NCBI GenBank assembly: GCA_004154925.1 | Contig: QJNS01000012.1 | Span: forward strand, 1-64,000 | Source of the DNA: Monosporascus cannonballus | Taxonomy: Eukaryota > Ascomycota > Sordariomycetes > Xylariales | Reading direction: 5' to 3' | DNA length: 64,000 nucleotides | Part shown: positions 419-46,763 of the stretch, piece after piece | How the letters are laid out: every line of letters begins with the position of its first letter | Numbering within the stretch: the stretch's first letter is position 1 | Made by a program: the position numbers and the translations under genes | Notes under the pieces: generated by a model | Seen by the model: the letters and a program-made list of their open reading frames with translations, nothing else | Told to the model about the DNA's origin: nothing | Database searches by the model: none

Positions 419-657
419 TGTCAGACCCAGCTGAAGTCGATCAAACAGCTAAGCCTTGGCTTAGTTTGATCACCTACTGAAACAAGGCTACTTTATGCAC
501 CCCCGGTATCTTTTCCTCCTAGCTATAGTTATATTTACGTATATAAAAAGAAAATTCGTTATTTTTATTTTTTTAATTAAAATCTGTTAAAAGTTAAATA
601 ATTTTTAATACATTTTTTAAATTATATATATTTTTATATATAATATAAGGTCTTATA
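419..657 (+). repeat. 5' LTR of Copia element A
   Basis: It matches the inverted LTR at 30950-31187 almost base for base over its first 125 bases; the remainder differs by C-T/G-A changes. It contains a near-palindrome at about 440-472 whose arms read GATCAAAC..CTAAGCC and GGCTTAG-TTTGATC. The outer half is essentially unmutated while the inner half is heavily AT-shifted. Confidence 0.88.
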
Positions 658-1479: not shown

Positions 1480-1712
1480 ATCTTATTAAATTTTTACTTA
1501 TACAAAAATTCGTAAAACGGTTCCGAAACTATATAAGATTGCGGAAAACTTAGAACGTTACTGCAAAACAGTTGTTATAAGAAGCGTTCGGCGTTACCCT
1601 AAATAAAAAGATTCCCAATTAAACAAGTACATTTTCAAATAACTGGAACAGCAATAACCGGAATAACAACAGCCGGAACAACGGCGGCGGTAATGGCAAT
1701 AACCGCCTTATA
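1480..1712 (+). pseudogene. Copia A gag, 5' portion, broken by insertion X
   Basis: This stretch is collinear with the inverse complement of about 30420-30660 in copy B, including a low-complexity Asn/Gly-coding tract (repeated AATAACAA / GGCGGCGG). Almost all differences are transitions. The frame is cut at 1712 by insertion X and resumes at 19054-19060. It would have encoded the Gag nucleocapsid precursor. Stop codons of the TAA/TAG type interrupt it. Confidence 0.75.
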
Positions 1713-2266
1713 CTCTACCTCAGCTAGCTCAGGCCTCCCTGGCTCGTTTTCTCAATTTCTTCAAAGTCACTCAAGTACCGCTCCATAACGCTAAATATTA
1801 ACCAATCAAATCCAAAATCCCCGTAACGAACCAGCAAGGCCTAAGTTATAATTGCGTAAAAACGGTTTCGTTTAACGCATTTGTTTTATTTAAAAAAATA
1901 AAAATCCGTAATAACTTAATAACATTACGTTTCTGTAATTATATATATATATATATAATTACCTTAATTATGGCTTATTATTGATACCATAATAATTCTA
2001 ATTAGGACTTATTTGTTATTCTTAAACCTTAATACGTATAACAGCTATAATCTGAATCCGTCGCGTTATTATCTCCCTTTTTAAAATATGATAAATTGAA
2101 ATTCTTCCAGTTCTACCGGGCTACGCCGTTAAAACAAAATATACGTACGCGTATCTTAAATTTCTGACATTAACATAAAAAGATTAATATAATATTTGAA
2201 AATTTTATTCGTAATTAAGTTTTTTACGACGATTTAGGCCGAACCATTAATTCGATTATTCGGATT

Positions 2267-2653
2267 TGTCATGACCCAACGGGCTGCGGTTTCCAAAACG
2301 GCCTATCATGACCTAACCACAAGTGCGCGGTGGGGCGGGTTACGTAACGGATCACCAACTTACTGGTAGTAAGCCAGTAAGCTGGATTACCAACTCACTA
2401 GTAGTAAGCCAGTAAGCCGGATTACTAACTTACTGGTGGTAAGCTAATAAGCCGGATCAAGATATATACGCCCATTATTTCCATAATTTAGATAGTATTA
2501 ATTTGTAATAACAATTCGTTACCTAAGGTACCTTTAGTATTACGAAACTTAATACGATATTATATTTATTATTTAGATTTTTATAATATTTCTGTTAACA
2601 AAAACCCGTATAATTTAAATTTAATAATTAGTTAAATCGCTTAGTTCGTTATA
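2267..2653 (+). repeat. 5' LTR of chromovirus copy 1
   Basis: It begins TGTCATGACCCAACGGG and ends AGTTCGTTATA, a RIP-altered form of ..GTCACA. It holds three tandem 35-bp units at 2351-2455 (ATCACCAACTTACTGG-type), each with internal self-complementarity (CTTAC..GTAAG and CTGG..CCAG). Confidence 0.92.
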
Positions 2654-8600: not shown

Positions 8601-8781
8601 AACGGAACAAAAAAAACAAGGTATCGCGTCAAAACCTTCAAGTTTAATCAAATTAACTAAAGCAAGCCGTTATTCAGATTTGCGAAAACGCCGTTTCGCT
8701 ACGCCAAAAAATATGCTGAAAAATGCGGAAACTTATTAAAGGAAAAATCTTAAGGGCAAAATTTGTAGAAAAAGGAAATTA

Positions 8782-9168
8782 TATTATAACTTAACGGGTT
8801 ACGGTTTCCAAAACGGCCTATTATAACCTAATTACGAATACGCAATAAGGCAGGTCACGTAACGAATTACCAACTTACTGGTAGTAAGCCAGTAAACCGG
8901 ATTACTAACTTACTGGTAATAAGCTAATAAGCCGAATTATTAACTTATTAATAATAAGCCAGTAAACGGGATCAAAATATATACGCCTATTATTTCCATA
9001 ATTTAAATAATACCGGCTTATAATAATAATTTATTACCTAAGGTACCTTTAATATTACGAAACGTAATACGATATTATATTTATTACTTAAATTTCTACG
9101 ATACTTCTGCTAACATAAACCCGTACGACTTAGGTTTAATAGTTGGTTAAACCGCCTAGTTCGTCACA
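8782..9168 (+). repeat. 3' LTR of chromovirus copy 1
   Basis: It is the same length (387 bp) as the 5' LTR, begins TATTATAACTTAACGGG (RIP-altered TGTCATGACCC) and ends TCGTCACA. It has three 35-bp internal units and is preceded by a purine-rich tract. Confidence 0.92.
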
Positions 9169-9173
9169 GGATT

Positions 9174-12100
9174 AACCGATTAATTAACGTATTAAAAAAA
9201 TACGCGAATAGTTATTAATATGCGAAAATTAACAAGAATTTCTAATTTTTATTAATTAGGATCCCGTTATACATAAGTACTATAATACCTTATACGGAAA
9301 ATTTATAATTTTCGCAAAAAAGCCTAGATTCCGTTATCCGCCAAAAGAATTATTATTCGAAATTAACGTAATATATATTATTTTGGACGAAAATTAACGT
9401 TTTATAAAAACGTTTATTTTTATTTAGTTTAAGCTTTTAAACCAGGTAATTATATATTTAAGGAAAAAATAGCAATCGCATAATACGAAATAGAAAATGA
9501 AATAATTTCGTAATAATAACAATCCGAATATTTTTATATATTTTTTTATGGTTTTAAATATTATGGTTAAAATAATTTCCAAAACTAACGGTAATTATTT
9601 ACCTTATTTATTAAGTAAATCTTTATTATTTTCGGGTTTATTACAGAATAATATCGATATATTCAAAAGATTAGGTATTTACGAAAGTTATTATACGTTA
9701 AATAAAAATGTAATTCGGTTAATAAAGAAAATTAAAATAACGGTATTAATTCTTTTATAATAATATAATTTTAATGTTTAAAATTATATTTATAATGTAA
9801 TATTTCGATATGGTACCGTTATACGGAATATTATTATTATCTTTATTTATTATTATCGCCATATTTTTAAAAAAGGATTAAAATAATTTATATTCCGGCC
9901 TAATTAATATTATAAAATAAAATAATTTTATAAAACGTTATACTAATATCTGGTACCGCCTAAGATTTCTTATTAATTTATAATTAATATTATCCATATT
10001 TTATTTCCGGTTTTTATTAATACGTTTTATAAACGTAACAAATGAAAATTCTCCGATTTTTTCAAATTAAAATATATACCGAATAATAAACACCGCTCAA
10101 TTTTATTAAGTATAATTAACGAAAACGAAGGTATTATTGACAGTTTTTATAACGTGTATCGAAAGATTTTCCAAAGAATATATCAATTTAAAGAAAAATA
10201 ATTTTATCGGTTTTCGGAACGTTTTTATCTTATTTATGGAAATTAGAAAATAATTAGTTATATTCGGAAAATATAGGCCAGTTAAGCCGAAATAACCGAT
10301 TCATATAATTAAAAACGCTAATATTTTCTTATTTTTGTCTTATTTCATATATAAATAAATTTTCTGCTTGTAATTATACGTATTAATTAGCCCAATAATA
10401 TAACTAAGATACATAAAATATAAATTACTTTAAAAACGAATTGTTAATATTTAAATAAAATAACGTAATTATATTAAAAATTGGCAAAATTTTACCTTTT
10501 CGAATTTTTTATCTTTTTTATACATAATATTTGCATATTTGCATTATTTTGGCAGAAATTACGTATTTAATACGAACTACTTATAATAAAAACATTTAAT
10601 ATATATGGAGCTTTTCGGAATATTTTGATTAAAAACTTTTTTTCAAAAACCGAACTTATCGAATTCATAAAATATATATGCTTCCGGTTAACCTTTGCAA
10701 AATTTAAATTTATTACGCATAATATAGTTTTTAAATATTTTAATCGCGCCAGATAAACAAAAAAAGTATTACGGAATTTTAATTAAAACGTATTAATAAA
10801 TAAAGACCTTTTTAATAAAAATCTTTTATTATTATTTATTAATAATACGTTACTTAATAATATAAATAATTTAACGGATAATTCGTATATATTTTATTTA
10901 TATTATTTATTAAACGGCATAATCCTAATCAAAATATATCGAATAACTTTTTAATCGGATAATTATAAGGCCGAAAATATCTTTAATACGGCTAATATTT
11001 TATAGGGCGATAATTCTTTTAACTTTATTAAAAATAATAATTAATTATCGATTAATACCGTTTTTATTAATAAAAAATTACGAAATTATTGTCGTTTTTT
11101 TTAAAAAACCCAGGTTTATTTATATTTTTCGTATATTATATAATATAGCGACGTTAATTATATTAGGCGGCTAATATTAATATTATTATTGTTTATAAGG
11201 CCGGTTAATTTAATTATGGTAAAAAAATATTTTATTTCGATTAAATATTACGTTCTGTAATATTAAATTAATCTTTATTAATTTGATTTTAATATTAAAT
11301 TTAAATCCGATAAAAGTTAAGAAAAAATACAAAAAGTATTTAATCGAAAAGACGAATATTATAATTTGTAACTTATTAACGAATTCCGCCGGTTAAGAAA
11401 TAAAATATATAATATTAATATTATTTTTTCCGAAATTCGTTTTTCATTAAGTACCGTACATCCCTATAATGCGAATTTTATATCCGTTATATTTTTTCGC
11501 AAAATGAACGTTACGTTATTTGGGATTTTCGTAACGAAATTTTCGAACGCGTTTATTTTTTGTTTCGGAATTTCTGGTTTATCAAAAGATATCTATTTTG
11601 GATTAAAAAGAATAGCTGGAAATCCGAAAATATTGTGGCCGCGGGCCGTAAAATTATAGAAATTAACTTTATCGATTTTAATAATATTATACGTATTGTT
11701 AACGATATAAATAAGCTTAACTAGCTGGATACGGCAAAAAACGAATACTAATATATAAATAATTTTAATATAGTTATACGAAAAACTTTTAATACTGAAT
11801 TTGTTAAGAAAAATTTGGTTTAAAATAATTATAATATTTCGTATACGAAAAACAGTTATAATTCTATAGTATAAATTATCGATAATTTAATTAATAGTCT
11901 TAATTAAGATAATCCATTATCGTTATCGTTATTATTAAATAAGCAAAATAAGGATTTATTAAACGAAAATAAACCGTTAATATAATTATTTATTTATTTT
12001 TATTTTATATTATATTTTTATATAAATAATATGATATTGGTATTATTATTTTAATATTAATATAATTTTATTATTTACGTAACCTTAACTAATTAGTTTC

Positions 12101-15100
12101 GCGATCGTTTTATATATTATTATAACTATTTAATTATTATATTAACATAATTTATTTACTTCCGGTAAAAAATCGTAAATAAGAAAATAATATTTTATGA
12201 TAAGATACGCGGCATAATTATTAACGAAAATAACATAAATTATTAAATTTATAATTTATATAATTTCAATTAATTATATTTAATTTAAACGTTTGGTTTT
12301 TCGTAAAATCGTATAAAAATATTATGTTATTTGTAATTAAATATAACGCATAATTTCGAATTAACACGTATATCTCGTCTGTAATTAATTTACCAGTTAA
12401 CGTTGTTAAATACTTTCTAAGATTTTTTCCTTTTGTTTTACCTTTTTTCGCGCGTTATTATAATTTGTATATTAATAATTCCTTTTGTGTTTTCGGATCC
12501 CAAAATTTTATCTGTTTTAGGCGTAATATTTAAATTTAAATCCTTTTGGAAATGTTTATTCGAATTATATAATATATATTTCCTAGTTAGTCGGCCCGGT
12601 CCTTAAAGTTATAAATCTTTTTTCGTATTATTTATATAATATCTAGTTTATATAACGTTTTCGCTAAATTGCGAAAACCGTAATTAATCGAAAATCCGTA
12701 ATTAATTTAATAATTTAATAACCTGCAAAGCCGGTATAATTTGCCATAATATAAATTTTATTCTGCCGGTTATTATTACGAAAAATATTTTAAATTATAT
12801 TATTAATATTTAATATTTATATAAATATAATATTTTTTCGTAATAACAAGTTGTATTCGTAATATAAATCTTTTGTAATATTACTAAATTTATAAACTTT
12901 TAATAATTTTAAGATTTTTCTAATTAATATATATTCATATTAATATTAAAACGGACGGTATTTATTTTCTTTTAATTTTTCGTTATGTTAATATAATTTT
13001 ATAACATATATTTAATATTTGAAATCGGTTATATATAATATGTACTTTTGGTTAAAAGTATTTTATATCTTAAGATAATCGATTATTATTTAATTAATAC
13101 GAAATTATCTTTACCGGCATTACGTCGTTGGTTTCGCCTTATCGCAAATTATTTTAATATTTATTCCGGTTATTTTTTAATCTAAGAATTTATTACCCGT
13201 TTTTAAGGTTATTTTTAAAAACAGGTTATTTTTCGGAAATAGGTTATTCTTTAAGAGCGAATTATTTTTCAAGGATATTATTAACAAATTTAGTTCCTTT
13301 AGCCGGGCGAATAAGGTTTTTTAAATTTATTCGGGATATATTATTAAAAGTTATAACAGAAATTGCCTTTATTATATCGGCAAAAAGTTTAGTTATCTTT
13401 TATAATATAATAAAATATAATAAATATTTAAAATTATTAAAAAGTATAATTAAATAAATAATATTAATTACATATTTAATATATATTTAATAAAAATAAT
13501 TTTATAAATTGTAATAAAAAGTTTTATAATAAAATATAAACCTTATATAATTTATATGTAATTATTAGATTTTTTTATATGTTATTATTTCGTTATAAAA
13601 AAATAACGTTAATTTTATTATTTATATTTAATAACTTATACAAATTTAATAATTTTTATATTTATAATTATATAATTTTAAAATTTATATATATTTTAAT
13701 TTTAATTATATATATTACTTTAAAACATTTTTATAACTTATTAATTAATTATAAGTTTTATTTATATATTATAAATTCTTATATATTTTTATTAATATTT
13801 ATAATATATTCGGTAATTATTAAATATATAAATTTTACTTTATTTATTATGTTTAAAATTGTTTTATATTTTCAGTTTTATTAAGCGAAATATATATCGA
13901 TAAATTTATAATATTATTAAATATCTTAATTATAATTATTTATTTATATATATTTAATATTATGTAATAATTATAATAATATTACTGTTATTTAATAAAA
14001 TAAAATACGGTAATCGTATTCGAAAAATATATAGAAATTTAGCAAAATATTAAAACATATATAAAGGTCGTAATAACGTTAAGTTAATTTTCGATATAAA
14101 TTATATTAATTGCGGCGCCATTTTTTGTAACATATTTTTTATTATATATATTATTTTTCTAAATTTTGCTCCAATTTACAAAATATGTTTTTTTTATGTT
14201 AAACGATTATTTGACAAAATCCTAATATTGCAAAATTTTTATAAAATAGATTTTATTATTATATATTAAAAAACGTAAGTTATTTACCGTTATATATATA
14301 TTAATATATATTTTATTTACGATAATGTCAGATTAATATTTAAATTAATATTCCGGCAAATCAATTATATATATATAATTTATAAAAACTTAATAAGAAA
14401 TGTATTTATATATTTTAATAATTTTTAAATGTTACTTTTATTAAATTCCAAAAAAATATTAAATAATATATAAAATTATTCATTTTTTTCTTATATTAAA
14501 ATATAATAATAAACTTATTAATATAGATAATACGGATTATTAAATAATAAGTTTTTAAAATTGTAAAATAAATATTTTCTATATTATAATTTTAATTAAC
14601 GCATATTTTTTAAAAAAATTCAATAATTCGGTCTATTAATTATTTTCGGGAATTGATAATTTATAATAATTTTTATAACATAAATAATATTAGAAATATA
14701 GTAATTTTATAATTATAATTAAACAGAATATAAAATTGTAATATATCTTATAATATATATTATGTAAATATTATTTTTATAATATTATATAAAAAAAATT
14801 CGTAATTATATGTAATTGGTTGCCGAGCAAATAATTTTATACAAAAATTAATTTTTTAAATATTGTGGTATTTTCGGTACTAATACTAAGAATTTCGACG
14901 GTTATCCGGAATATCCGATTATTATTATATTTATATAGGATTTTGTCATAAAGGGATTTTTAAAACTATTGGAGGAAAAAATAAAAGAATCCTTAAAATT
15001 AACCGGGGACCTAATTATGCCGATAAAGAGGAAACGTGGTAAAGGGAAAAAAGCTAGATCCGGCCGTCGATTTTTATTAAGAGAACTAAAAAGTCTTAAT

Positions 15101-18100
15101 TCGAAAAAATTATTATTAAAATCTTTAATAAAATTACAATAAAATATACGGATAATTTCGAAAAATATTTATTAAAATCGTATACCGATAAATATTAATC
15201 TTAATTATAAGAAAATAAGATTATAAAATATAATTAATAAAGATTTATTATAAATCCGAGATTTTAAATATTTCGAATTAATATTTTTAAAAAAGCAAAT
15301 ATCGGAATAATTATATTAATAACGAAAAAATAACTTTCTTAGTATTAACGAAAAATTATTTATATTATTTATTTATTTAAATAATTATTTTTTTTACTTA
15401 AATTATTCGACCCGAATTAAAGTATTTTGAGGATTAAAAAATAAGAATATTTTAAAACATAATATAACGAATTCGAAAAAAAAAACAGGAAAATAAGATT
15501 TAAAACATTTTAGTTCGGCATTATAAATTATAGATTTTAAGTTAAAAGGATAATTTATTGATAATTACGATAAATTATAATTCGAATTACATAATATAAA
15601 ATTTTATTAATATTTTTAATTAAAAACATTTATTATATATTTATTATAACATATAATTATTCCAGATTAAAATAAATTAATATCTTATATAAAGCTTAAT
15701 AAATTAAAAATTGTTAAAAATAATAAATTTAACAAATCAATAATATATTAATAATTTTAATTAATATTATGTAAATATTTATAATTATTGCGGTTTATAA
15801 TCGTAACGCAGTATCGAAATTAAATGCGTTTTTTATTATTGGTCTTAATTAAAACCGACAGAATTTCGTTTTTTATTTTTTAACTTAATATCATAATTAT
15901 CTTTGAATTTGTTATTAATATTATTATTTAATAAGTACCATTTATTCCTAACGTACGATTTCTTAATTTCGATAAGGATTATTATGTTTTGGCAACGCCG
16001 GCAATTCCGGTAATAATACAAAAATAAACAAATTATACGAATATAGGTACGATAAAAAATAGGATTGGAAAATTAAAAATATTTAAAAACGATAAATTTT
16101 ATACCGATATTATAAATAAAAAAGATAAAATAAATTTTTAATTAGGATTACTTAACACGTTACGAATTATACATATAAATATAAATATTATTGTAATCAA
16201 AATTATAATTTTATATCATAAAGGTATATAAATTATATACCGGTTTAATATTTAAATTATTAGGATTATTATTAAATGATTAAATATTAATTTAAATCGA
16301 ATAACCGTATGCGGTATATTTTAATTAAGACGGAATATAACTTAAAACGGCTGTATAATTTTTCCTGATATTTATTAAATTTATAATATAATAATAATCC
16401 GTAACTTATATAGATCGGTTTACGGTATAAAATATAACGTTATTATTTCCAATTAAACGAATTTGGCTATTTATAAAAGATTATTTATATTTTTGTAAAA
16501 TCGAAAATATAACTTTTTTGTATATTATATATAATGTAAAAAATAAACGATTTTTAAGATATTTCAATATTATTATTTATCGAAATCGGGGACCGCCTTA
16601 ATTAATTCGAATATGTTTTAAATTAAATACGGATTTTTAATTTCGTTTAATTTATTAAAAATAAATATTTATTTTATTTTTTTACTGCCAAACGGAAATA
16701 ACCGTATAAAAAGTAATTTATTCGCCCGTTTTCTATATCAGGATTTTATTATTTATTAAATAACCGCCTTTATTAAACCGGTTTTTGGTTATTTTTACGT
16801 AAATAATTGCGAATTTAAAGGTTTAGATATATGAAAAAATTAAACATATATATGTTAAAATAAAATCCAGCCGAAATTAAGTTATTACGGTTTTTTTCCA
16901 GCATAATAGTTTCGTGTTTTTTAAATATGTCATAATCGTTTTACGTATATATTTCCCGTTAAATAACATATATTATTAAAGCCTTATTTGTATCCGGTGC
17001 TATAAGTTAAAATTATTTTATTTCGGAAATTTAAAAATAATATTTTAACTGGTTAAAAATTAAAATTAAAATTCGATAATTATTTCGCTTTCTTTATTAT
17101 CCGAATCTGTTATGTTAATTTTTATTATAACCTTTATATTTTTATAAGTAATATTGTTTTTAATTTGCCGGGCCTAAATGTTTTTCGTTATTTTATTTTT
17201 CTTTAAAATAAAAAATTCGGTTTTATATTTATAATTAATTATATTTAATTACTTATAATTATAAATAGTTTAATTAAATTATTATTATAAATCCTTAATC
17301 GAAAATTTTTACGGTATATTTTATTATGTTATTCGATTAATATCCGGAATATTTATGTTTAATCCAAATACGATAATAAATACCACGATATAAGTAAAAT
17401 TATTTAATTACTTTAAGTTATTATATATATAAATTTAATCCCCATAAAATATTTCGGAATTATAAAACTTAATAATTTTTTTATAACTTTTAATAAATAC
17501 CTCCGGTTTATTATCATCTTAATTAAGTAATTACGGATATTTATAATTTTCGTTTTCTAATTAATAAAAATAATAATTTTAATAATGAAATATTAATTAT
17601 TAAGCTGGATTAAATAAATCTTATTTAATAATCCTGATATATTAATTTTTTAAGAATTTAAATATTTTTAATTCGAATATTAAATTTTAAGTATAAGGAA
17701 AATAATAATATTGATTTTAAAATAATTAATATTAAAATACCGGATTTCCGCCTTATAACTATGTTTAATTAAGCTGCCGATTAAACGAAAACTATTTTAT
17801 TTCGTAATTTTCTTTTTTATAATATTATTAGTAATTATTATATATTTATATTAATATATATAAATAAGAAAAATAAAACGTAAATTATAAGTATTAGTAT
17901 ATTTAAATCGGAAATTGTTTTATTTCGATAAAAAAATATTTCGTTAATAATAATTAAATTATATCGTTGTTCGAAAATAAAAATTTAATATAATAATTTA
18001 GAATTAATTATTCGATATTTATTTAAAATTAAAAATAATGTAATTATGCCGTTTGGCAATTATACGGTTAAATATTTTTAAGTTAAGTTGTTTCGTATTT

Positions 18101-18890
18101 ACAAATATAAAAATAAAAGTAAAATATAAATTATTAATACAAAAATTTATTATTTTTGTTAACTTAATTAATAATATGATTTGGATAATAATTAAATCGA
18201 TTATTAAAAAAGGTTTGGATAATTAACTATTTTTAAAGCTTATTTTAATAATAAAAAATATATTAAGTTTTTCGAAAACCAAATTATATACCGTATCGGC
18301 TTATTTTTTCCGTAAAATACGGCTTTATTCGTTAAATATAATGCCTAATATAAGGCGAATAAATTAACGGCGTAAGATTTCCGTAAAGTTATTAACCGTA
18401 TATATAATATTGGCATATAGGTTAATTACGTTTATATCGGTAAAAAACTGGTAAAAGTATTAAATAAAAATAAATATTTCATTTTAAAAATTCAAATAGT
18501 CGAAAATTTAAAATATTTATTTTAAAATATTAAATATATTACCCGTATTTAGTTAATTAAAAAAGAAATATATTTCGAAATTTATCATAAACGAAGTTAA
18601 ATTTTATTTATTATTATTATATTAACTTAAAAAAATAAAAAATTATAATATATATTAATCGGAATTTTAAGTTATGTTTTATTATAATAAGTTTTATTAT
18701 ATATTAATTAAGATTATTATTATATTAAAAATAAAGATTTTAATTTTATATTAAATTATATAAGTTAAAATATTAACAATTTCGTAATTAATATATATTA
18801 TCAAAATTAATAATAATAAATTTTACGAATTTATATAAAAACGTATTAAACGGAACGAAAAAATCATAACTTATTATCAGTCCTTATTTT
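9174..18890 (+). other. RIP-degraded interior of element X, unidentified
   Basis: About 9.7 kb of extremely AT-rich DNA lies here without a recognisable gene. One interval on the + strand, about 11560-12290, reads as a plausible protein if TAA/TAG are taken as former Gln codons; it contains short peptides such as SWKSENIVAAGRKIIEI and ends NQLYLI-stop. A second, less mutated, Lys/Arg-rich stretch (IKRKRGKGKKARSGRR) is read at about 15015-15065. Neither matches a family I recognise. The 101-codon open frame at 13579-13884 is AT-rich low complexity and not considered a gene. Confidence 0.4.
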
Positions 18891-19059
18891 GGAGGTTTTA
18901 TTATTTTTGTAAGTATTATTTTTAAAGAAGTTTAGCTGATATATTGGACCCCTAATAGATATTCTTGATCAAAAGCTATAGCTGTGGCTACGACTGCTGC
19001 GTCGCAGGCGCAGCCACAACCTCCAAAATGGGGTCCTGATCACGATGAGGCAACTTATA

Positions 19060-19190
19060 CCAAAATGTTACTATGGAGAAAAACATTTTTTTAAGAATTG
19101 CCCCTATATTAACGAAAGCGTTAAACCCGACAAGTAAAATAAGGTATTTAAAATCAGGAAAAGAAAATAAATAAATATATTTCGGAAATT
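19060..19190 (+). pseudogene. Copia A gag, zinc-knuckle portion
   Basis: Resuming after insertion X, the frame at 19066 reads CYYGEKHFFKNCPYI, a Copia-type C-x-C-G-x2-H-x4-C knuckle in which the second Cys has become Tyr (TGT to TAT). The corresponding sequence in copy B (about 30350-30400, - strand) retains that Cys. The frame is not intact. Confidence 0.78.
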
Positions 19191-19581
19191 TCGCTTTAAT
19201 AAAAAAATTAAATGTTTATAAAAGAAAACTAAGTTATAAATTTTTTAATTAATTTTAACATTTTTAAAACCAAGTTTTTTATAAATTCATAAATTAATAA
19301 TTTTATTACTAAATATAACTTAAAAAGATTTATTTTGTTAAATACTCATTTTGATTTCTATATAAAAAATCGTAAAATTAATTTGTTTAGTTTATATTTA
19401 TTAGAAAATAACGGAAAACTTTTAACCGAAAAAACATTTTGATATTATAAGCAAAAATTTACGAAATATTACGTTTCTTATACTATTAAATATTTAATAT
19501 TATCTATTTAAAAAATTATTTATATATTTTCAAAATATATATTAATTTTACTTTATATATAGTATTTTAACAAATTAAACT

Positions 19582-19745
19582 TATAAGGGGCTGCATACGC
19601 AGTAGCTAATGATATAGGCCATAACGGGTCTATTAAGAAATTTAAGGAACAGCTAAAAAATGCGTAAAAGCAGCTAGTTATATATATAGAAGCCACGGGA
19701 TTAACGTTACGCTAATCCTTTCACTAAAGCTCTTAGCCCGTAACA
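19582..19745 (-). repeat. LTR of the compact element (left copy)
   Basis: It aligns with 20932-21096 throughout, differing mainly by transitions. The + strand start TATAAGGGGC is the RIP form of TGTAAGGGGC, and the end is CGTAACA. Confidence 0.75.
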
Positions 19746-20931
19746 TAACCCCCCCTTTTAAATCCAATCCTCGTTTTTTCCCGCTATGCGGTAAACGCTT
19801 ATTCGTAATACCCTTTTAAGGACCTTGTTTCAAGGCGGCGATATTCGCAAATTTTAATCCAAAAAGTTCTTTAACTGTTACGGGAAAACTACGCCGTATA
19901 TTTTACGCCTGTATGTCTTTAACGTGCTACGCGCCATTAACTTTGTATTTTCGCGTTACTTTTCCTAAAGCCTCTTTTTTTGCCAATATTTTTAACGTTT
20001 CGTAAGCGTCGAACTTATTTAGGTCCTTTTAGACTTTATCGAATACCTCCGCGGCTGCTTTTTATCGTTTAAATAGCGACGGAACCTTTGGGGCCTTGTT
20101 AACGCCAATATATCGGACGGCGACTTCTTTCTCTTTAGGATAATTCCTCCAAAAATACCCCGTTTCGCCATACCCTAAATAACGCCCTTCCGCTTATTAA
20201 CGGTATTTGCATTAATAATTAACGGCTAACGTACCGATTTTCATATTTTCCATAATATCGTCTTTTAATTAAAAAATTATTACGCGTAAATGTGCCAGGA
20301 TAAAAGCCGTTAAAAACGATATTTCCGAACGGTAAAGGAATTACGCGAATTTTTCCCAAATATTAGGTTATTTTTCGTAATCCAATTATTTTTTCGTTTT
20401 GGCGTTAACGCCCGAAATTAATAGAAAAGTTTTAGCTTTATCCGGTTATTTATTTTTTTCGACCTAATAAAAAGCATTTTCGAATATAAAAACGTATTTA
20501 AATGCCGTTTAAACGTTACGTTAATATAATTTAATTAAACGTTAATTAATTTTTTATTTTTTATTAGGTTTTTTTAAGGTAATAGTAATATAATTTAAAA
20601 AAGTTTAAAAATTTAACGTTTTTAAAACTTTTTGTATATATAATAAAAACGTCGACTTTGAAAATTAACGGTTAAAGATTTCCCAAATATAAAAAAATTA
20701 CGTACGATTATCGCCGATTGCTTTTTCGTTAACGAATAATTTCCTATCCATTTCGAACCTTTAAGCGTTATAATCCTTACGGTCTTATAGTTCGCAAACG
20801 ATTCGTAAAATCTGACGGCGCGGTTCCTCGGTATTTATGGCGAATAAGTTACGTACGAATAACGGGTGCGTAACGTTAGCGTATTTCTTACGGTAACGGA
20901 CCGTTTGCGAAAAAAAAAAGATTTCTCAATA

Positions 20932-21096
20932 TATAAAAGGCTACATACGCAGTAATTAAGGATATGGGCCATAATAGGTCTATTGAGAAATCTAAAAAAC
21001 AGCTAAAACGACACGTGGGAACAGCTAATTACATATATAGGAGCTACGGGATTAGCATTACGCTAATCTTTCCACTAGGGCTCTTGGCTCGTAACA
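20932..21096 (-). repeat. LTR of the compact element (right copy)
   Basis: It aligns with 19582-19745 and ends CTCGTAACA, followed by AAATT. It is less mutated than the left copy over its right half. Confidence 0.75.
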
Positions 21097-24000
21097 AAAT
21101 TTTATTAAAATTATAAAACCAATATTATATATTCCATAATATTAAAAATAGAAATAATAAAAATAAATTAAATTAAACGTTAATTTGTTATATACCATAT
21201 TAAAATAATACCGGAAAACGATAACGATAATAATATTTTAATAAATTTTATAATAATTAAAAAGTTTATTATTATTAGCTTAACCAATAAAAATAATTTA
21301 AAAAATAAAATTATTTTCGAAAACAAAAATAAAAATTTCGTTTCGAAGCCCTTAATTTAAGAATTTTTATTTCCTAAATTAATTCCGTAATAAAAGTTAT
21401 ATAACAATAATTCCAGGTTTTCTTTAAAACTTTTAAAAGGAAATATTACGTTATAATATTAAAATTTAATAAATTTACTTTTACGTACTTTCGAAAAAAT
21501 AATATAAATAATTATTGAAACGAAACTTTATTAACTTTTAATAATTGGATATTAAAAATATTATATTATTAAGGCGTAAAAAATATTATAAGAGTAATTA
21601 ATTAAGAAAAATAAATTTTTTAACGTAATATACGTTAATTGTTTGGAATTTAACGATATTTTTAATAAACGTATAAAAGTATTCAGTATTTCTTATCCAG
21701 TTATTAAGGTTAAAATTTATTAAATATTAAAAAATATAAAAATATATTTTAACCGCTTTAATAAACGTAATAATTTTTCTTAAAAATAATTTTATATTAA
21801 AATTAAAAAGATTATACTAATTAACGAGATTTTCTTTAAAAATAAATTTCGAAAATAATTTTTCGATTTACATATATTTTATAAACTTTTATTTTTATAT
21901 ATTAAAAAACCTGCAAATGTTTAAAACCGTATTAAAGGCGTAATTATTACGAAAATATATTACGTAATTATTAATAATACCTTTTTTTCCGATCTATAGA
22001 CGGAAATTATGAAAATAACTATATATATCGTTAATCGCATGTTTATTTATACCTTAAAATAAAAAATCCTTATTTAAATTTTTAACGAATAATTAATCAA
22101 AAATAAAATAAAATATTCATTTTCGAAAAAAATTAAAAACGAATATAACAAATATCATATTTTTTAAATTAAAGGTGTATATATTTACGAAAATAACGTG
22201 TTAAAACGTAGAATGCCTAAAAAAATTAAATTCCAAAATGTATATCGGTTATTTCGTAAAATAGGTAATTAATAATATATATCGGATATAGATATTTTCG
22301 TTATAACGCGTTATTATTATTAAAAATATTATTTTAACGAAATAAAATTATATTAAAATAAATAAAAATATTTTCGTTCGCAATCGCAAAATTAAACGAC
22401 TAAATCGACAATATCTTTATTTTACTTATAATAATAATTTCTTTATAGATATTTAAAATTATTTTTAATAACGATCTTTTAAAAACAAATATTATTAAAC
22501 AATAAATAATTTGGTAAAACAAAAAAGTTTAAAGAAATTATTTACAATATTATCATAATAATTATAAAATATTTTTATTTAAAAAGCTTTATAAAAAATT
22601 AAAGGGGTAAAATTTAATAATACGTATAAAGTTATTTCGGACGAAAATTCCTCTAATTTAGCAATTAAAAATAATTTCGAAAAACAATATCTTAAATATT
22701 TTTATTAAAACGGACGATTCGGAACGTAAAATTATATAACTTTATTTATCTATATTAAATATTATTTGAGCATTTAAAAAATCTTCAATAATATTATATA
22801 TTATCGCCGGATAAAATTTAAAATATATTATTATATTTTTTTACCTAAAATAATATCGTATAAAAATAAAATTCTTAAATTATATAATTATTATCAATTT
22901 CGATACGTAAAATAAAAAAATATTGTCGGCCAATAATAATTATAAATGAAAAATCGAAAAAGATAATACGTATTTATTTATTTTTAACGTTAGTTTTTAA
23001 TTATAATTAAATATAATTATTTATATCGTATTAATTTTCCCGTTACCGTTGAAAATTAATAAAAGATTATATAATATAAATATACTAAAAATTAAAAAGC
23101 GGTTACGTTTAAAATCAAGATTAAAGATATTTAATAAAGTAATTAATTATTATTATCTTGTTGCAAAAACTAATTTAGGACGTAAATTCTAACGGTATTT
23201 TTCTGTTAATATAAATATTTATATATAAATTTAATAAATACTGAATAATTTAAAAGTTGAAAATTAAAATCATTATCCGTAATAACTTTAATTTTATAAG
23301 GATTTTAATACTTATATAGTTACGTTAATAAAGGATTTTTGCCGTATATTTATAATTATTAAAACTTGATTTAACTTTAACCTTTATTAATTTAATATTA
23401 TTAATACATTTATATATAATAATCTTAATAAATTAATATATATATATATATTTATAAGGATTTATACGCCGGGGTTTTTATTTAAAGTTTTAAAAAAGTT
23501 TATATAATTTAAGGCGATTATTATTTTTATAATAATAAAACTTAACGGCAAACTTAAAAGAATTAAAATTAAATTCCGTTCCGGATAATTTATATATTAT
23601 AACTCATAATTAGTTAGTTTTATTTTTTTATATTACTAATATATTTATAATATATATTAAACATTATTTACGAAATTAATATAATATTTTTATATTAATA
23701 ACTGCAAAGTTTATAATAAGTTTTTAAAATACGTATTTTGCAAAATTATATAATTTAAAATTTATAATTATTATAAAATATTTATTAAAGAATTCTATAT
23801 ATATATTTCGAATTATTTATATACAGAAAATATTAATTTCAAGTCCTTAAATAAAGACATTTTAAAAAATACTAAGGCAAAATATTAATAAGGTTTAAAA
23901 TATTATATTTCGAAAAAATCGAAAGTTTATTATACAGAATTATTATTCTTCACTTAAATTTAATTAAAATTATTTTTTTTTATTTTCTTATTATGAAGAC

Positions 24001-24905
24001 CTTAGCCTTACGTATTTTAACGTTATTAATAAAATTATTTTTTATATTTATTTTATAGATATTGTAGTCCTAGAATTCGGAAATAACGAAAATCTTAACG
24101 TATAATTATTCCCATATATAAATAATTTTTTTTTACAGATAACCCCGATCGGAAAAAGTTTTAAGAATTTGTATTATTATTTTTTAATAATTCTATCGTA
24201 TACAAAGCTAATAAATAAAATATGATTATTCTTTTGAATACGAAAATTAAATCATTAACTTTATTATAAATTCTAAACAAATTTTTTTATATTAAAATTA
24301 TTTGAAGTTATTAAGTTAATATTAAATAAAAACTTAATTATATAAATAAAAAATAACAAATAAGATAATTAATTATTAAAAAAATTATATGTTAAATTAC
24401 GAAAATAAAATAGGTAAATATTTATAATTAAAAATTTCGCAAAATCTACGTAATAAAACAAATAAAGATTAAATATTTATTAAATTATTAAATTTTTAAA
24501 ACGTTATTTTAAGATTAACAAAACTTAAGAAATATTAATTTATCTTAAATATTACATAATAATAAAAATATTATCTTTAATTTTTTCTTATTATTTTTTT
24601 GGGTCTAAATTATTATTATTATTATTTTTAAATAATTTTAAAAATAAAATTAATAGAACATTTTTTTAATAAAATCATTTTAATTCAATAATATAACATT
24701 ATATTTTAATATTTAAAAATATAATTTTAAATCTGCGTAAACATTTTAATATTTTAAATAATCTTCCGAATTAATTAAAATATTAATTGTATTTGTTCTC
24801 TTTTTATATTTTTTATTATTTATTAAAAATTAATTATTATAATAATTTTTTAAATTTGTTTAAAATTATGAAAAGTTTAATTATTAATTTTTAATTATTT
24901 AAAAC

Positions 24906-25148
24906 TGAATTATATTTAATCAAAATTAATTAAATAATTAAATTTCAACTTGATTTAATTATTTATTAAAATAAGGTTATTTTCTGTACCCCTGGTATTA
25001 TTTCCTTTTAATTATAGTTATATTTACGTATGTAAAAAAATGGTTCGTTACCTTTACCTTTTAGCTAGGTCCTTCTAGAGGTTATGTAACCTTTAATACA
25101 TCTTTTCTTCAGTAATATATGCTTCTATGTGTGATGCAGGGTCTCATA
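24906..25148 (+). repeat. 3' LTR of Copia element A
   Basis: The stretch from TGTACCCCTGG at 24985 to GGGTCTCATA at 25148 aligns with the 5' LTR and, inverted, with 25777-25930. Here the outer (right) 150 bases are little mutated and the inner (left) part is RIP-degraded, the reverse of the 5' LTR. The left boundary is uncertain by a few bases. Confidence 0.82.
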
Positions 25149-25153
25149 TTTTC

Positions 25154-25598: not shown

Positions 25599-25776
25599 TT
25601 AGACCCAAGGGTTATAGACTCTCCATACGGCATCCCCGATTGGATTTCGCTCGATCCGATTATCGACGCAGTTGAACTGGCCAATGGCGCCAACCCGCTT
25701 ATTTTCGCCAAATTTCGCGATAGAATCGATCACGATATCGATCACGTCGGTGTATCCGACGTGGGTATAGAAGTGG
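25599..25776 (-). pseudogene. Hce2-like secreted protein gene, 3' fragment
   Basis: Read on the - strand from the element B junction, the frame runs to a TAA at 25599-25601. It holds a TDVIDIVID-type helix followed by a Gly-rich stretch and one Cys (FNC), as in the C-terminal half of fungal Hce2 / Ecp2-like effectors, which end shortly after such a cysteine. The fragment continues, in frame, the coding sequence that stops at 31188. The shared junction bases AGTGG (25772-25776 and 31188-31192) are the target-site duplication of element B. The family is known for small secreted Cys-containing proteins; necrosis-inducing activity is reported for some members. Whether this copy was active before the break cannot be told. 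Confidence 0.72.
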
Positions 25777-26012
25777 TATAAGACCCTGCATCACAAACAG
25801 AAGCATATATAACTGAAGAAAAAATGTATTAAAAGTTGCATAACCTCTAAAAGGTTCTAGTTAAAAAGTAAAAGTAACGAACCCTTCTTTTATATCTGTA
25901 AATATAATTATAATTAAAAAAATACCACAAATATATAAAATAAACTTATTTTAATAAATAATTATATTAAATTAAAATTTATTTATTTATTTAATTTTAA
26001 TTAAATTTAATA
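25777..26012 (-). repeat. 3' LTR of Copia element B
   Basis: 25777-25930 is the inverse complement of the 3' LTR of A with few changes. The inner part toward about 26012 is RIP-degraded and its boundary is approximate. Confidence 0.82.
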
Positions 26013-26019
26013 TATTTCT

Positions 26020-29000
26020 TTAATTCTTAAAATTAATAGTTAAATTTTTTATAATTTCAAACACCTTTTTTTTTTAAAAAATACCATAATAATTAATTTT
26101 TAATAATTAATAAAAAAAATATAAAAACGAAAAAAAAAATATTTGAATTAATTCTAGAAATTGTTTAAAATATTAAAATTTTTAATTAAATTAGAATTTA
26201 TATTTTTTAATATTAAAAAATAACGTTATATTATTAAATTATACAAATCTTAATAAAAAGTATTCTTATTAAATTTATTTTTAAAATTATTTAAAAATAA
26301 AAGTAATTATAATTCATAAAAAAACAATAAAAAACGAAAATAATAAATTTTTATTATTAGGTAACATTTAAAATAACTTAATATTTGTTAAGCTTTTTTT
26401 AATTTTAAAATAATATTTTAAAAATTTGATAATTTAGTAAACTTTTAATATTATTAAAATTTTAAAAGTTTAATTACATTTTTATTACCATAACGTTAAT
26501 AAACATTTATTTAATTTTTATTTTTCTTATTATATAAGCTTTATTAAATTAATAATTATCAATATATATATATTTTAATTTCGTAATTACATATATAATT
26601 CTTTTAATAATTAGCTATATCATTTATTTATTAATTACGTAAATAATTAAATCATTATTTAATGTTAATTTAATAACTTTAAATAACTTTAATATAAAAA
26701 ACATTTGTTTTATAATTTATAATAAAATTAATAATTTAATTTTCGTATTCGAAATAATAATTATATTTTGCTTGTTAACTTTTTATACGATAAGATTACT
26801 GAAAATAATAATATAAATTTTTAAAAGTTTTCCCGATCGGGGTTATCCGTAAAAAAGAAATATTATTTATATATAGGAATAATCGTACGTTAAAATTTTC
26901 GTTATTTTCGAATTCTAAGATTAAAATACCTATAAAATAAATATAGAAAATAACTTTACTAATAACGTTAAAATACGTAAGGCTAAGGTTTTTATAATAA
27001 TAAAATAAATAAATAATAATTTTAATTAAGTTTAAATAAAAAATAATAATTCCGTATAATAAATTTTCGATTTTTTCGAAATATAATTTCTTAAATATAA
27101 TTAACGTTTTGCCTTAATATTTCTTAGAATCTCTTTATTTAAAAACTTGAAATAATATTTTTTAAATTTATATAATCCGAAATATATATATACTTTTTCT
27201 TGATAAATATCTTATAATAATTATAATTTCCTAATTATATGGTTTTACAAAATATACATTTTAAAAATATTATATTAATTTCGTAAGGAATTTGTTAACA
27301 TATATTATATTATATATCCTATATAGTATAGTTATATTATGAACATAAAAAAATAACGTTAACCAGTTATGAATTATAATATATAGGTTATCCGGAATAG
27401 ATTTTAATCCTAGTTCTTTTAATTCGGCTATTAGGTCCTATTATTACAAAAATAATAATCGCTTTGAACTGTATAAGGCTTTTTAAAATTTTAAATAAAA
27501 CCCGGGTATATAAATCCTTATAAAAAGCGTAGATATATTAAGTTATTAAGGTCGTTATATAAAAATGCGTTTATAATATTAAATTAACTAAATTTAAATT
27601 TAAATCGGATTATAATAATTATAAATATACGGAAAAACTTTTTTTTACTAACGTAAATACGTAAATATTAAGGTTTTTACGGAAATAAAAATTACTGCAG
27701 ATAATAATTTTAACCTTAAAATTTTAAATTATTTTGTATTTATTAAATTTATATATATATATTTATATTAACGAAAAAATACTGTTAAAACTTACGTCTT
27801 AAATCGCTTTCCGTAATAAGATAACGGTAATTAATTGCTTTATTCGATATATATAATCTTATTTTTTTGCGTAATTATTTTTTAATTTTCGACATATTTG
27901 TACCATATAACTTTTTATTACTTTTTAGAGGTATCGAAACAGTTAATATAATATAAGTAATTATGCTTAATTGTCATCGAAAAAATAACGTTAAAAACGA
28001 TTAAATACGTATTATATTTTTCGAATTCCAATTTATAATTAATATTAGCCGAAAATAACTTTTTTTTTGGTTTCGTATATCGAAATCGATAATAATTATC
28101 CGATTTAAGAAATTTAATTCCGTATAGCGTTACCTCAATTAAAAAGAACGTAATAATACATTTTAAGTTTTATTTAGCGGTAATACGTAATATTATTAAA
28201 GATTTTTTTAAAGGGCTAAAATAATTTCCAGTATAAGCAAATAAAATTTTGCAGTTTACGTTTCAAATTTTTCATTTTATTAAAGATATTTAGAATATTT
28301 TTTTCAAAATTATTATTAACTGCCGAATTAAAGTAATTTTCATTCGAAATAACTTTTTACGAATTATTAAATTTTACCCCCTTAATTTCTTATAAAACGT
28401 TTTAAATAAAAAATTTATAATTATTACACTAATACCGTAAATAACCTTTTTCAGTTCGTTTTATTTTGCTAAATTATTTTTAATAGTATTTATTTTTTTA
28501 AAAATCGTTATTAAAAATAATTTTAAATATCCTTAAAAAATTATCACTGCAAATAAAATAACGATATTATTAATTTAGTTATGTAAATTCATAATTTCGA
28601 ATAACATTTGTTTTATTGTTTTAATATAATTTTATTTTATTAAAAATATTATTCTTAACGGTAATAATACGTTATTACGAAAAAATCTATACTCGATATA
28701 TGTTATTAATTATATATTTTATAAAATACCCGATATAAGTTTTTAGATTTATTTTTTTAGCCGTTTTACATTTTTATGGGCTGTTTTTATAAACGTATAA
28801 ATCTTTAATCCGAAAAACATAATATTTGTTATATTCACTTTTAAACCGTTTTCGGAAATAAGTATTTTATTTTTTTAATTAATTATTCGTTAAACAGTTA
28901 AATAAAGATTTTTTAACTTAAGGTATAAATAAATATGTAATTAATAATACATATAATTATTGTTATAATTTCCGGTTATAAGTCGAAAAAGAATTAGTAT

Positions 29001-30250
29001 TAATAATTAAATAATATATTTTCGTAATAATTACGCCCTTAATACGTTGTAAAACTCTTATCGATTTTTTAATATATAAAAATGAAAATTTATAAAATAT
29101 ACTTATATCGAAAAATTATTGTCGAAATTTTTTCCTAAAAAATCTCTCGCCGTTTAATATAATTATTTTAACCTTAATATAAAATTATTTTTAAAGAAAA
29201 TTTTTATATTTATTAAAGTAATTAGGGATACTTTTTCCGCTTTAAATTATAATTGATTTTAACTTTAATAATTAAGTAAATAATAATTAATATTTTTATA
29301 TACTTGTTAAAATTTTTAATAAGTTCGAAAAAATTAACTTATATTATATTAAAAAACTTATTTTCTCTAATTAATTACCGTTATAAAAATATTTTCCGTA
29401 CCTTAATAACTGAATAATTTTAACATTAATTTATTAAAGGTAAATAAATTTTCGTTGCGGTAACTGCTTATATTACTTTTTTACAAGTACGTAAATTTAA
29501 ATATGCAAATTTTTAATGCTGTAACGTAACGTTTCCTTTTAAAAACTTTAAAAAAATCTTAAAATTATTACCATAAAACTTTTATTACGGGATTAATTTA
29601 AATAACCAAAATTTTTAAATTAAAAATTGCTCAAAAAAATTTTCGCTTTAAATTTTAAAAATACTTTTCTCTTTTAAATTATTTTTGTTTTTTACAATAA
29701 TAATAATAAGATTTTTAATTATTAACAATATTATTAAAATAATATCGTTATCGTCGTTTTCCGGTTTTATTTTAATATAACATATAACGAATTAATATTT
29801 AAATTAAATAATATTCGCCATTTTTATTTCTAACGTTTCATAATATATAATATTAATCTTATAATTTTACTGAATTTTAATTTATTAAAATATTTTATGC
29901 AACATTAAATTAATATATATTTTCAAAATATATACATAATTTTTTAAAAAATATTAAATTTTCTTAACGGTATAATAAACGTAATTGTTCGTATATTTTT
30001 ACTTATAATATTAAAATATTGTCTTCCGGTTAAAAGCTTTGCGTTAATTTTCGGTAAATATAAATTTAAAAAAATTAATTTTAGGATTTTTTATATAAAG
30101 ATTAAAATAAATATTTAATAAATTAAATCTTTTTAAGCTGTATCCGGTAGTAATATCGTTAACTTATAGGCTTATAAGAAATCTTGTTGCAAAAAACGTT
30201 AAAATTAATTAAGGAGTTTATGGTTTTTTTTTTTGTAAACGTTTAATCTT
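26020..30250 (-). pseudogene. Copia B pol, RIP-inactivated
   Basis: This is the inverse complement of the pol region of element A; a clear landmark is the shared block at 26825-27000 versus about 23985-24160. Strings of TAA/TAG stops interrupt every frame. Family assignment rests on the linked gag knuckle and on the segment identified in copy A. Confidence 0.65.
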
Positions 30251-30700
30251 TTTTTTTGTTAAAGAGGAACTTTCGAGATATGCTTATCTACCTTTTTCCT
30301 AATCTTAGAAACCTCGTTCCACCTATTGGGTTTAACGTTTTCGTTAATGTAAGAGCAGTCCTTAAAAAGTGTTTCTCTCCACAGTAGCACTTTGGCGTAG
30401 GGCAGTTATTGCCATCACCGCCGCCGTTGTTCCGGCTATTGTTATTCCGGTTATCTGAAGGTGTACCCGTCTGATCAGGAGTTTCTCCATTCAGGGTGAC
30501 GCCGGACGCTCCCCGTAACAACTGTTCTGCGGTAACGCCCTAAGCCTTCCGCAGTCTCATATGGCTTCGGAACCGTTTTACGAATTTCTGTACGGGTGGA
30601 AGCTTAATAAGATCCTTACCTTCGAATATGGCTTCCTTTACCTTAGACCTTTAGGTAATAAAGAAATCGGGAAAATAAATATTAATAACTTTTAAAAAAT
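30251..30700 (-). pseudogene. Copia B gag with zinc knuckle, frameshifted
   Basis: An Asn/Gly-rich linker (NNNSRNNGGGDGNN) is followed by KCYCGEKH, the first half of a C-x-C-G-x2-H-x4-C knuckle. After the His, the Cys that should close the motif is in a neighbouring frame, so a one-base indel is present. This is the least mutated coding stretch of the family in the window. A continuous 77-codon frame remains at 30288-30521. Confidence 0.75.
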
Positions 30701-30949
30701 TAAAATAACCGTAATAACTTATAATAATAAATATTTAAAAATATATTTTAAAATAAATTTACTAAATTTTAATTAAATTATTATACTTTTAAAAAAATTA
30801 AAAAATAAATAAATTAAAATAATTAAAAATATAATAATTAAATAAAAAATATATTATAAAAATATTAATTTATTTTAAAATAATTTTAATATAATATATA
30901 TAATAAATATATTAAAATATAGCTAAAAAATACGGTCCGGATTTATAAT

Positions 30950-31187
30950 TTTAAAATTATATATTATATATAAAAATATATATAATTAAAAAATTTATTA
31001 AAAATTATATAATCTTTTAAAAAGTTTTAGTTAAAGGGTAAAGGTAACGAACCCTCCTTTTATATACGTAAATATAGCTATAGCTAGGAGGAAAAGATAC
31101 CGGGGGTACATGAAGTAGCCTTGTTTCAGTAGGTGATCAAACTAAGCCAAGGCTTAGCTGTTTGATCGACTTCAGCTGGGTCTGACA
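30950..31187 (-). repeat. 5' LTR of Copia element B
   Basis: It starts (in - orientation) TGTCAGACCCAGCTG at 31187 and reaches about 30950, where ATTATAAATCCGG of the interior follows, as ATTATAAACCCGG does after the 5' LTR of A at 658. The outer 120 bp is intact and the inner half RIP-degraded. Confidence 0.85.
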
Positions 31188-31510
31188 AGTGGCCGTAGGC
31201 GGTAAGGCGGGAGCCGAAGCTGCAGGTGCCGACGCTGCGGACTATGGCGAACTCGTCAATGTTTTCGGCAACGGTCTTCCACCCGGAGGTATGAATGACC
31301 GAGTTCTTTGCACCCGCCAGCTCTTCGATAAGCTTCTTGCAGTCAGAGATCAATGGAGCCTCGCCGTTCGTCTCCTTCGTGAACGTCGCCTGTCCACATA
31401 GGTCCATATCCTATCGGTACTTGCCCAAAAGTTGTATAGTGGACTGGAGTCCTTCGAGCAAGGGCACCAGTAGCCAGTAAGAGATTCCCGATTAAGGCTT
31501 GAGGATACAT
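31188..31510 (-). pseudogene. Hce2-like secreted protein gene, 5' fragment
   Basis: From an ATG at 31405-31407 an open frame encodes DLCGQATF, then a Cys in SDCKKL and a Cys in VGTCSFG, with spacing typical of the fungal Hce2 (Ecp2-like, putative necrosis-inducing factor) domain, and runs straight into the LTR of element B. Upstream, at 31508-31510, another ATG opens a signal-peptide-like start (MYPQALIGNLLLATGALA), but it is in a different frame. Either an intron I cannot place or a one-base indel separates them, so the gene may have had a second lesion. The domain's missing C-terminal part lies at 25599-25776. The product would have been a small secreted protein of roughly 130-170 residues. 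Confidence 0.7.
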
Positions 31511-31988
31511 ATCGGACTGAGTAACTGGTGTTGAGAAGATTGATTATGGTATAATCTGGGGATGCAGAGTATCTTGTGGTGTCTGCTTGGTTCGAAACGG
31601 TTGTGGACGTGTAAAAGTATCTTGACAGCCGTATCGCTACTACATTTATACTACACATACTCCAACAATGATTAACATGTAAATGGGCCTTTCGAATTCG
31701 GGGAGTCATGGACCGGGGGCGGGTTTGTGCAGGGCTGTACGAAGGATCATACGAACCACTGTGGGAAGGTAGTCCTTGTGGCACATTACTTCTTCGGGTG
31801 TATAGCGGAGCTGTTGATCTTTAGTAGAGGTGATTCAAGAGATGTGGAAGAGGCATAGCGTCACTCTGCTTGTTAGGATGGCTAGATCCGCCCAGATTCA
31901 GGTTATTGCCCGTAACAAAGGATAGGTATTTAAAGGGTAAGTTACGTGTAACCGACAGTTTGTACGCCCTACGGGTGTGCAACTAAGC
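31511..31988. other. Intergenic region, no gene seen
   Basis: Balanced host DNA between the broken secreted-protein gene and the 3' end of the alkaline phosphatase gene. The frame at 31350-31784 (-) is a chance frame overlapping the effector fragment. A terminator or polyadenylation site must lie here but I cannot point to one. Confidence 0.5.
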
Positions 31989-46758: not shown

Positions 46759-46763
46759 ATTTT

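What the first reader, a model, noticed from the sequence alone, without database searches (positions are those of the whole stretch)
25599..31510. A Copia insertion has split an Hce2/Ecp2-like secreted protein gene
On the - strand an effector-like domain starts at 31407, runs uninterrupted to 31188, meets the LTR of element B, and resumes in the same frame at 25776, ending with a stop at 25599. The 5-bp duplication AGTGG on both sides shows a clean insertion. Loss of small secreted proteins by retrotransposon insertion is a known route to altered host recognition. A frame difference between the signal-peptide-like start and the domain suggests a possible second lesion. The inserted copy is itself dead, so the mutation is probably fixed.
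Basis: partly seen in the sequence, partly recalled or inferred. Interest (0 to 1): 0.8.

Follow-up and report, generated by a model that had tools for sequence, protein, structure and literature searches.

The report
Retrotransposon split a fungal effector-like gene
In this melon-root pathogen genome a dead retrotransposon sits inside a gene for a small secreted Hce2-type protein, whose domain is still undivided in the relatives found; it is a clear but ordinary kind of gene loss.

Summary
Confirmed. The window is from Monosporascus cannonballus: P0002 (DL762_000653) matches its phosphatase frame at 99%, ends in its own read-through residues and is recorded on a contig of the same length. Both fragments exceed Pfam's Hce2 cut-off (36.6 and 27.8 bits against 25) and match consecutive parts of a 164-residue protein of Monosporascus sp. 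MG133 (80% and 86%). Between them lies a degenerate 5.4-kb LTR element, 25777-31187, flanked by AGTGG, with Copia reverse-transcriptase remains. One copy of the duplication keeps the reading phase. A second lesion is real: the signal-peptide-like start lies in another frame, and a stop precedes the domain. No other close copy was found in the genome. Models of four relatives have the domain undivided. The deposited protein hides the damage by fusing the neighbouring alkaline phosphatase to the broken domain plus LTR-coded residues. The fragments carry 10 private changes in 130 columns, against 1 to 5 in the relatives, fitting relaxed constraint. Whether all isolates share the insertion, and any host effect, could not be tested.

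The parts
31421..31510 (-). Signal-peptide-like start of the Hce2 gene (so judged by eye and by its orthologue), in a different frame from the domain
   Evidence: 21/30 identical to residues 1-30 of MG133 P0001; one search places the same piece at 31421-31510
31188..31410 (-). First Hce2 fragment, preceded by an in-frame stop; holds 3 of the 4 cysteines of the orthologue
   Evidence: PF14856 36.6 bits, profile 2-63; 60/75 identical to P0001 34-108; one TAG inside the match 31186-31431; cysteines
25599..25776 (-). Second Hce2 fragment with the stop codon; 25772-25776 is the duplicated target site
   Evidence: PF14856 27.8 bits, profile 70-103; 50/58 identical to P0001 107-164
31188..31192 (.). 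Target-site duplication AGTGG, one side
25772..25776 (.). Target-site duplication AGTGG, other side
25777..31187 (-). Element B, degenerate Copia-type LTR retrotransposon
   Evidence: LTRs; 141, 176 and 163 stops in its three sense frames; body 26015-30300 GC 0.161
30950..31187 (-). 5' LTR of element B (inner edge approximate)
25777..26012 (-). 3' LTR of element B (inner edge approximate)
27273..27753 (-). Remains of the Copia reverse transcriptase (RVT_2) spread over three frames
   Evidence: tblastn with the RVT_2 piece of a related copy on C103, E 1.5e-44; a piece from C153 gave only E 7e-4
31126..31187 (-). LTR-coded tail: one codon across the border, 19 more residues and a stop, read on from the first fragment; present at the end of the deposited protein P0002
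31989..33278 (-). Alkaline phosphatase, stop-to-stop frame, just upstream of the Hce2 gene and joined to it in the deposited model
   Evidence: PF00245 252.6 bits; its C-terminal tail is like that of relatives
31763..31807 (-). Stretch between the two genes whose translation is in the deposited model P0002
   Evidence: located
419..25148 (+). Element A, a second copy of the same family in the other orientation (3' ends facing), itself interrupted; 450 bp lie between it and the Hce2 stop codon; flanked by TTTTC at 414-418 and 25149-25153
   Evidence: self-comparison, LTRs and duplication

Best explanation
A Copia-type LTR retrotransposon inserted into the coding sequence of a single-copy Hce2-type small secreted protein gene in the M. 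cannonballus lineage (shown for this assembly). It was then heavily mutated, most likely by repeat-induced point mutation (RIP; inferred from composition and transition excess). The gene also carries a frame change and a nonsense codon between its start and its domain (shown). No complete Hce2 protein can be made from the locus by ordinary translation; at most a short secreted-type peptide without the domain, or a truncated domain with an LTR-coded tail and three of four cysteines (inferred). Relatives keep the domain undivided next to the same alkaline phosphatase (shown at the level of deposited protein models). The loss most likely followed, or led to, relaxed constraint on the protein (inferred).
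For: Both fragments over the Hce2 cut-off; collinear 80% and 86% identity to P0001; frame-preserving 5-bp duplication; flanks found once each by DNA search; P0001 finds in the genome only this locus and a 31% identical domain on C163 (E up to 0.01); complete Hce2 domain in P0001, P0003, P0004 and P0006; RVT_2 remains at the expected place; LTR pair with 66 transitions and 10 transversions in 232 aligned columns; private changes in the fragments 10 of 130 columns against 1 for GIB2, alkaline phosphatase 3 against 5 of 379 (Fisher p 1.2e-4 for fragments against phosphatase in M. cannonballus, 10:1 comparison p 0.012).
Against: No reads, RNA data or second isolate were available. The assembly is from 150-bp Illumina reads (PMC7407469, section 3), and LTR edges are similar among copies. 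Three of the four undivided orthologues are seen only as fused gene models, so a separate gene is shown for MG133 alone, and that too is a predicted model. GIB2's model lacks the signal-peptide part, and in M. ibericus the model reads isoleucine where the start methionine should stand. Private changes were also 5 of 130 in M. ibericus, 2 in MG162 and 1 in MG133, and an excess could also reflect diversifying selection. The 10 transversions are an upper bound on non-RIP change, as the AT-rich alignment is loose. No RVT_2 match was listed in the window itself.
Confidence: 0.93

Rival explanations
1. The alkaline phosphatase and Hce2 domains form one real fusion protein in Monosporascus, and in M. 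cannonballus the LTR supplies its new 3' end, so a shortened fusion is still made.
For: Four deposited models join the two domains: P0002, P0003, P0004 and P0006; in the M. ibericus model the separate start methionine is missing.
Against: The junction differs between the models, and in all four the phosphatase's own last residues are replaced. MG133 has two separate genes. The window's phosphatase frame keeps a histidine-rich end like that of MG133 and of the six other homologues printed, chosen from 121 held. Gene models came from AUGUSTUS with Neurospora crassa settings.
Confidence: 0.05
2. The gene was already a pseudogene through the frame change and stop codon, and the element landed in dead DNA without consequence. 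This is a variant of the best explanation that differs in the order of events.
For: Two lesions apart from the element lie between start and domain; ten private residue changes.
Against: Both fragments are otherwise open, and the order of events cannot be read from one genome. The stop could be RIP spreading from the element after insertion, as described for single-copy genes near repeats in Leptosphaeria maculans (PMC2973834, passages); the composite RIP index is slightly positive at 31411-31988 (0.33 and 0.25) but negative in both fragments.
Confidence: 0.35
3. Short-read misassembly placed a repeat inside an intact gene.
For: Illumina-only assembly; similar LTR edges in many copies.
Against: A false join would not be expected to give both halves of one gene in register with a 5-bp duplication.
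Confidence: 0.03

Closest known systems
AVR1 of Fusarium oxysporum f. sp. lycopersici truncated by the transposon Hormin (PMC3428301; passages seen)
   Same: Mobile element in the coding sequence of an effector gene, target-site duplication, chimeric truncated reading frame
   Different: hAT DNA transposon of 759 bp in one field isolate, with transcription and virulence examined; here a degenerate LTR element and no phenotype
Avr2 transposon insertions in Cladosporium fulvum (PMC4406682; passages seen, abstract among them)
   Same: Element insertion and frameshifts in a secreted avirulence gene
   Different: Variation within a population under known host resistance genes; here no matching resistance gene is known to me
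Loss of Avr genes linked to a Ty1/Copia element in C. fulvum (PMC10823647; passages seen)
   Same: A Copia element of about the same size (5.6 kb, 240-bp LTRs) connected with loss of an effector gene
   Different: There by translocation at truncated copies; here by insertion into the coding sequence
Hce2 effectors VmHEP1-5 of Valsa mali (PMC6637899; passages seen)
   Same: Same Pfam domain in small secreted proteins of a plant-associated ascomycete
   Different: Intact and functionally tested; single deletions did not reduce virulence there, a warning against assuming an effect here
RIP spreading into AvrLm genes of Leptosphaeria maculans (PMC2973834; passages seen)
   Same: Effector genes lying between RIP-degraded AT-rich repeats
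   Different: There the lesions are RIP mutations, deletions and substitutions; here the main lesion is the insertion itself

Membership tests
Hce2 (PF14856) | Profile match over the curated cut-off | tested here: met
   36.6 and 27.8 bits against 25, profile 2-63 and 70-103
Hce2 (PF14856) | Four cysteines (number recalled as typical) | tested here: met
   Orthologue P0001 has cysteines at 38, 57, 96, 142; the first fragment holds three, the second the fourth
Hce2 (PF14856) | Signal peptide in frame with the domain | tested here: not met
   The start matches P0001 1-30 but in another frame, with a stop before the domain; no signal-peptide predictor was run. This is part of the damage, so it lowers 'functional Hce2 gene', not 'remains of one'
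Hce2 (PF14856) | Effector or necrosis-inducing activity | not testable with these tools
   Needs an assay
Ty1/Copia LTR retrotransposon | Paired LTRs and a 5-bp target-site duplication | tested here: met
   both element A and element B
Ty1/Copia LTR retrotransposon | RVT_2 reverse transcriptase | tested here: met
   None of the 96 RVT_2 matches listed for the genome is in the window, but two LTR-bearing copies, on C103 and C378, have one at the matching place, and the C103 piece finds remains in B
Ty1/Copia LTR retrotransposon | Integrase before reverse transcriptase | tested here: inconclusive
   None of the 12 PF00665 matches lies in the window or in the copies I fetched
Ty1/Copia LTR retrotransposon | LTR ends TG...CA | tested here: not met
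   Ends read TG...TA in both A and B; TG...TA is recalled as a known minor type. The name Copia rests on the reverse transcriptase, so 'Copia-type' is used

The most novel reading that the evidence does not exclude
Loss of this Hce2 protein is species-wide in the cucurbit pathogen M. cannonballus, happened after its split from the endophyte lineage GIB2, and was favoured by the change of lifestyle, for instance by removing a protein that cucurbit roots recognise.
Probability: 0.1. Interest if true: 0.6.

Novelty: new member of a known kind. Interest (0 to 1): 0.35.

Why it matters
It gives one concrete gene loss separating a root pathogen from relatives listed as endophytes; the genome paper of the genus, in the parts I saw, compares numbers of predicted effector genes. 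It also shows how a deposited protein record (DL762_000653; a UniRef name in the listing calls it alkaline phosphatase) can carry a broken effector-like domain joined on by gene prediction, so effector counts from such annotations can mislead.

Tried and rejected
An intron between start and domain was considered for the frame difference. The P0001 matches of the two pieces overlap on the DNA (31421-31510 and 31186-31431) and the second carries a stop codon, which leaves no room for an intron, so a lesion is the better reading.

A true phosphatase-Hce2 fusion was considered and set aside because the junctions differ between species and MG133 has two genes.

A search of P0001 against the large protein collection returned only itself among 33 candidates, so no orthologue outside Monosporascus was found within that tool's reach and length limits. 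The first-fragment search returned one protein of 2 candidates. No genome of another isolate was held: the tool reported no relatives. The cluster of P0002 lists 4 member sequences on 2 contigs, which hints at a second isolate with the same truncated model but does not show it.

The idea that RIP spares LTR edges was looked at only in 6 of the 40 scored matches of 344 candidates (A, B and four others of the best six); those were picked by similarity to a little-mutated edge, so the sample is biased and the idea is left open. An integrase search gave nothing in these copies. A reverse-transcriptase piece from C153 found B only weakly, E 7e-4.

Papers: a search for Monosporascus with Hce2 found one paper, where the two words stand in unrelated passages. 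In the main text of PMC7407469 no word begins with 'transpos', 'RIP' or 'repeat'; I saw its outline and abstract, sections 3 and 16 and part 1 of 2 of section 10. In PMC12543289 I saw passages only, and Monosporascus is not named in it. No printed report of this insertion appeared in the listings of the nine searches made; most subscription papers are not held.

Full report
Where it is. The genome holding the window has 88.8 Mb in 618 contigs, and the window is the first 64 kb of contig C35, 585,567 bases long. The alkaline phosphatase frame next to the finding is 99% identical over 98% of its length to P0002, DL762_000653 of Monosporascus cannonballus, whose longest contig is also 585,567 bases, and P0002 ends with the window's own read-through residues. 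The host is therefore M. cannonballus; the paper on these genomes names it an important pathogen of cucurbit roots (PMC7407469, abstract). Which of the three sequenced isolates it is was not settled.

The gene. On the minus strand the frame from 31410 and the frame 25790-25599 each score over the Pfam cut-off for Hce2, covering profile positions 2-63 and 70-103. A 164-residue protein of Monosporascus sp. MG133 (P0001) matches the first at 60 of 75 residues (34-108) and the second at 50 of 58 (107-164). Its first 30 residues match a third piece at 31421-31510, 21 of 30. P0001 has a complete Hce2 domain with 68.9 bits.

The insertion. Between the two domain pieces lies 25777-31187, flanked by AGTGG on both sides. 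Its two ends are LTRs of about 236-240 bp that pair as 156 identical, 66 transitions and 10 transversions in 232 aligned columns, with 15 gap columns. This excess of transitions, GC 0.161 and a composite RIP index of 0.65 in the body against -0.30 and -0.36 in the two gene fragments fit RIP. Its sense frames hold 141, 176 and 163 stops. Copia identity: of 96 RVT_2 matches listed for the genome none is in the window, but copies on C103 and C378 carry both an LTR like this one or its edge and an RVT_2 match at the matching place and sense, and the C103 piece finds its degenerate counterpart in element B at 27273-27753 with E 1.5e-44. A second copy, element A, lies tail to tail with it at 419-25148 with its own duplication TTTTC and is itself interrupted by other sequence.

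The second lesion. The start and the domain are in different frames, and one TAG stands in the domain frame between them. The MG133 and MG162 models read from start to domain without interruption. So even without the element the gene as it stands in this assembly would not encode the protein.

Copy number and relatives. P0001 finds in this genome only the three pieces here and a 31% identical domain in a long frame on C163; each flank is found once by DNA search. Other Hce2 matches in the genome are a complete one in a 188-residue frame on C101, whose beginning looks like a signal peptide by eye, one in a long frame on C163, and a partial one in a relative of the latter on C428. Undivided Hce2 domains are found in models of MG133, GIB2, M. 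ibericus and MG162, beside or joined to the same phosphatase.

The deposited models. P0002, P0003, P0004 and P0006 join phosphatase and Hce2 into one protein, with differing junctions, whereas MG133 has two genes, DL767_003594 and DL767_003593. The phosphatase in the window and in MG133 ends in a histidine-rich tail, as do the six other homologues printed. The models were made by AUGUSTUS with Neurospora crassa settings (PMC7407469, section 3). I take the fusions for prediction artefacts. In P0002 the model steps over the lesions, enters the domain, and ends in LTR-coded residues.

Constraint. With the fragments aligned apart to the four orthologues, M. cannonballus has 5 private changes in 74 columns and 5 in 56, together 10 of 130. 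The others have 1 (GIB2, the closest by identity here), 1 (MG133), 2 (MG162) and 5 (M. ibericus). In 379 ungapped columns of the first 400 phosphatase residues the numbers are 3 for M. cannonballus, 5 GIB2, 7 MG133, 7 M. ibericus and 16 MG162. Within M. cannonballus the difference between gene and neighbour has Fisher p 1.2e-4, and the 10 to 1 comparison with GIB2 p 0.012. This fits relaxed constraint, though diversifying selection before loss is not excluded. Only five sequences were available, and the p-values treat columns as independent.

What it means. The loss of a full Hce2 protein from this locus is as good as shown at sequence level for this assembly. That the protein was an effector is inferred from its family; in Valsa mali single deletions of Hce2 genes did not reduce virulence (PMC6637899, passages), so a phenotype should not be assumed. 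Inactivation of effector genes by element insertion is known (PMC3428301, PMC4406682, passages). The finding is thus real and was carefully read by the first stage, but ordinary in kind.

Noticed in passing
window 30250-30660: A 411-bp island of GC 0.445 inside the otherwise AT-rich body of element B, with an open frame (30288-30539, minus) that has a zinc-knuckle-like CxC...H motif (seen by eye, name recalled).
   Followed up: partly
window 419-560, 25000-25148, 25777-25900, 31031-31187; L010-L013: The outer 100-160 bp of the LTRs next to single-copy DNA are much less AT-rich than the inner part in A and B; the first 120 bp have GC 0.38-0.53 in 6 of 6 5' ends looked at (sample picked by similarity, so biased).
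   Followed up: partly
L018 / C428:13950-14063, against L001 / C163: A relative (90% DNA identity over about 1.6 kb) of the long C163 frame with an Hce2 domain; its Hce2 match covers profile positions 1-33 only, so a second Hce2 locus in this genome looks broken.
   Followed up: partly
P0004 (M. ibericus model): Reads isoleucine at the place of the start methionine of the Hce2 gene, so that gene may be independently damaged or its start lies elsewhere.
   Followed up: no
window 2265-9168 and 46762-53872: A long direct repeat, its pieces about 73-79% alike, in parts with strong AT skew, one copy nested inside element A.
   Followed up: no
window 34657-35907, 59097-59726 and 60632-61876: Neighbouring frames with a PRISE-like domain (PF22917), a terpene synthase domain (PF19086) and a capsular-polysaccharide-synthesis-type domain (PF05704).
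   Followed up: no
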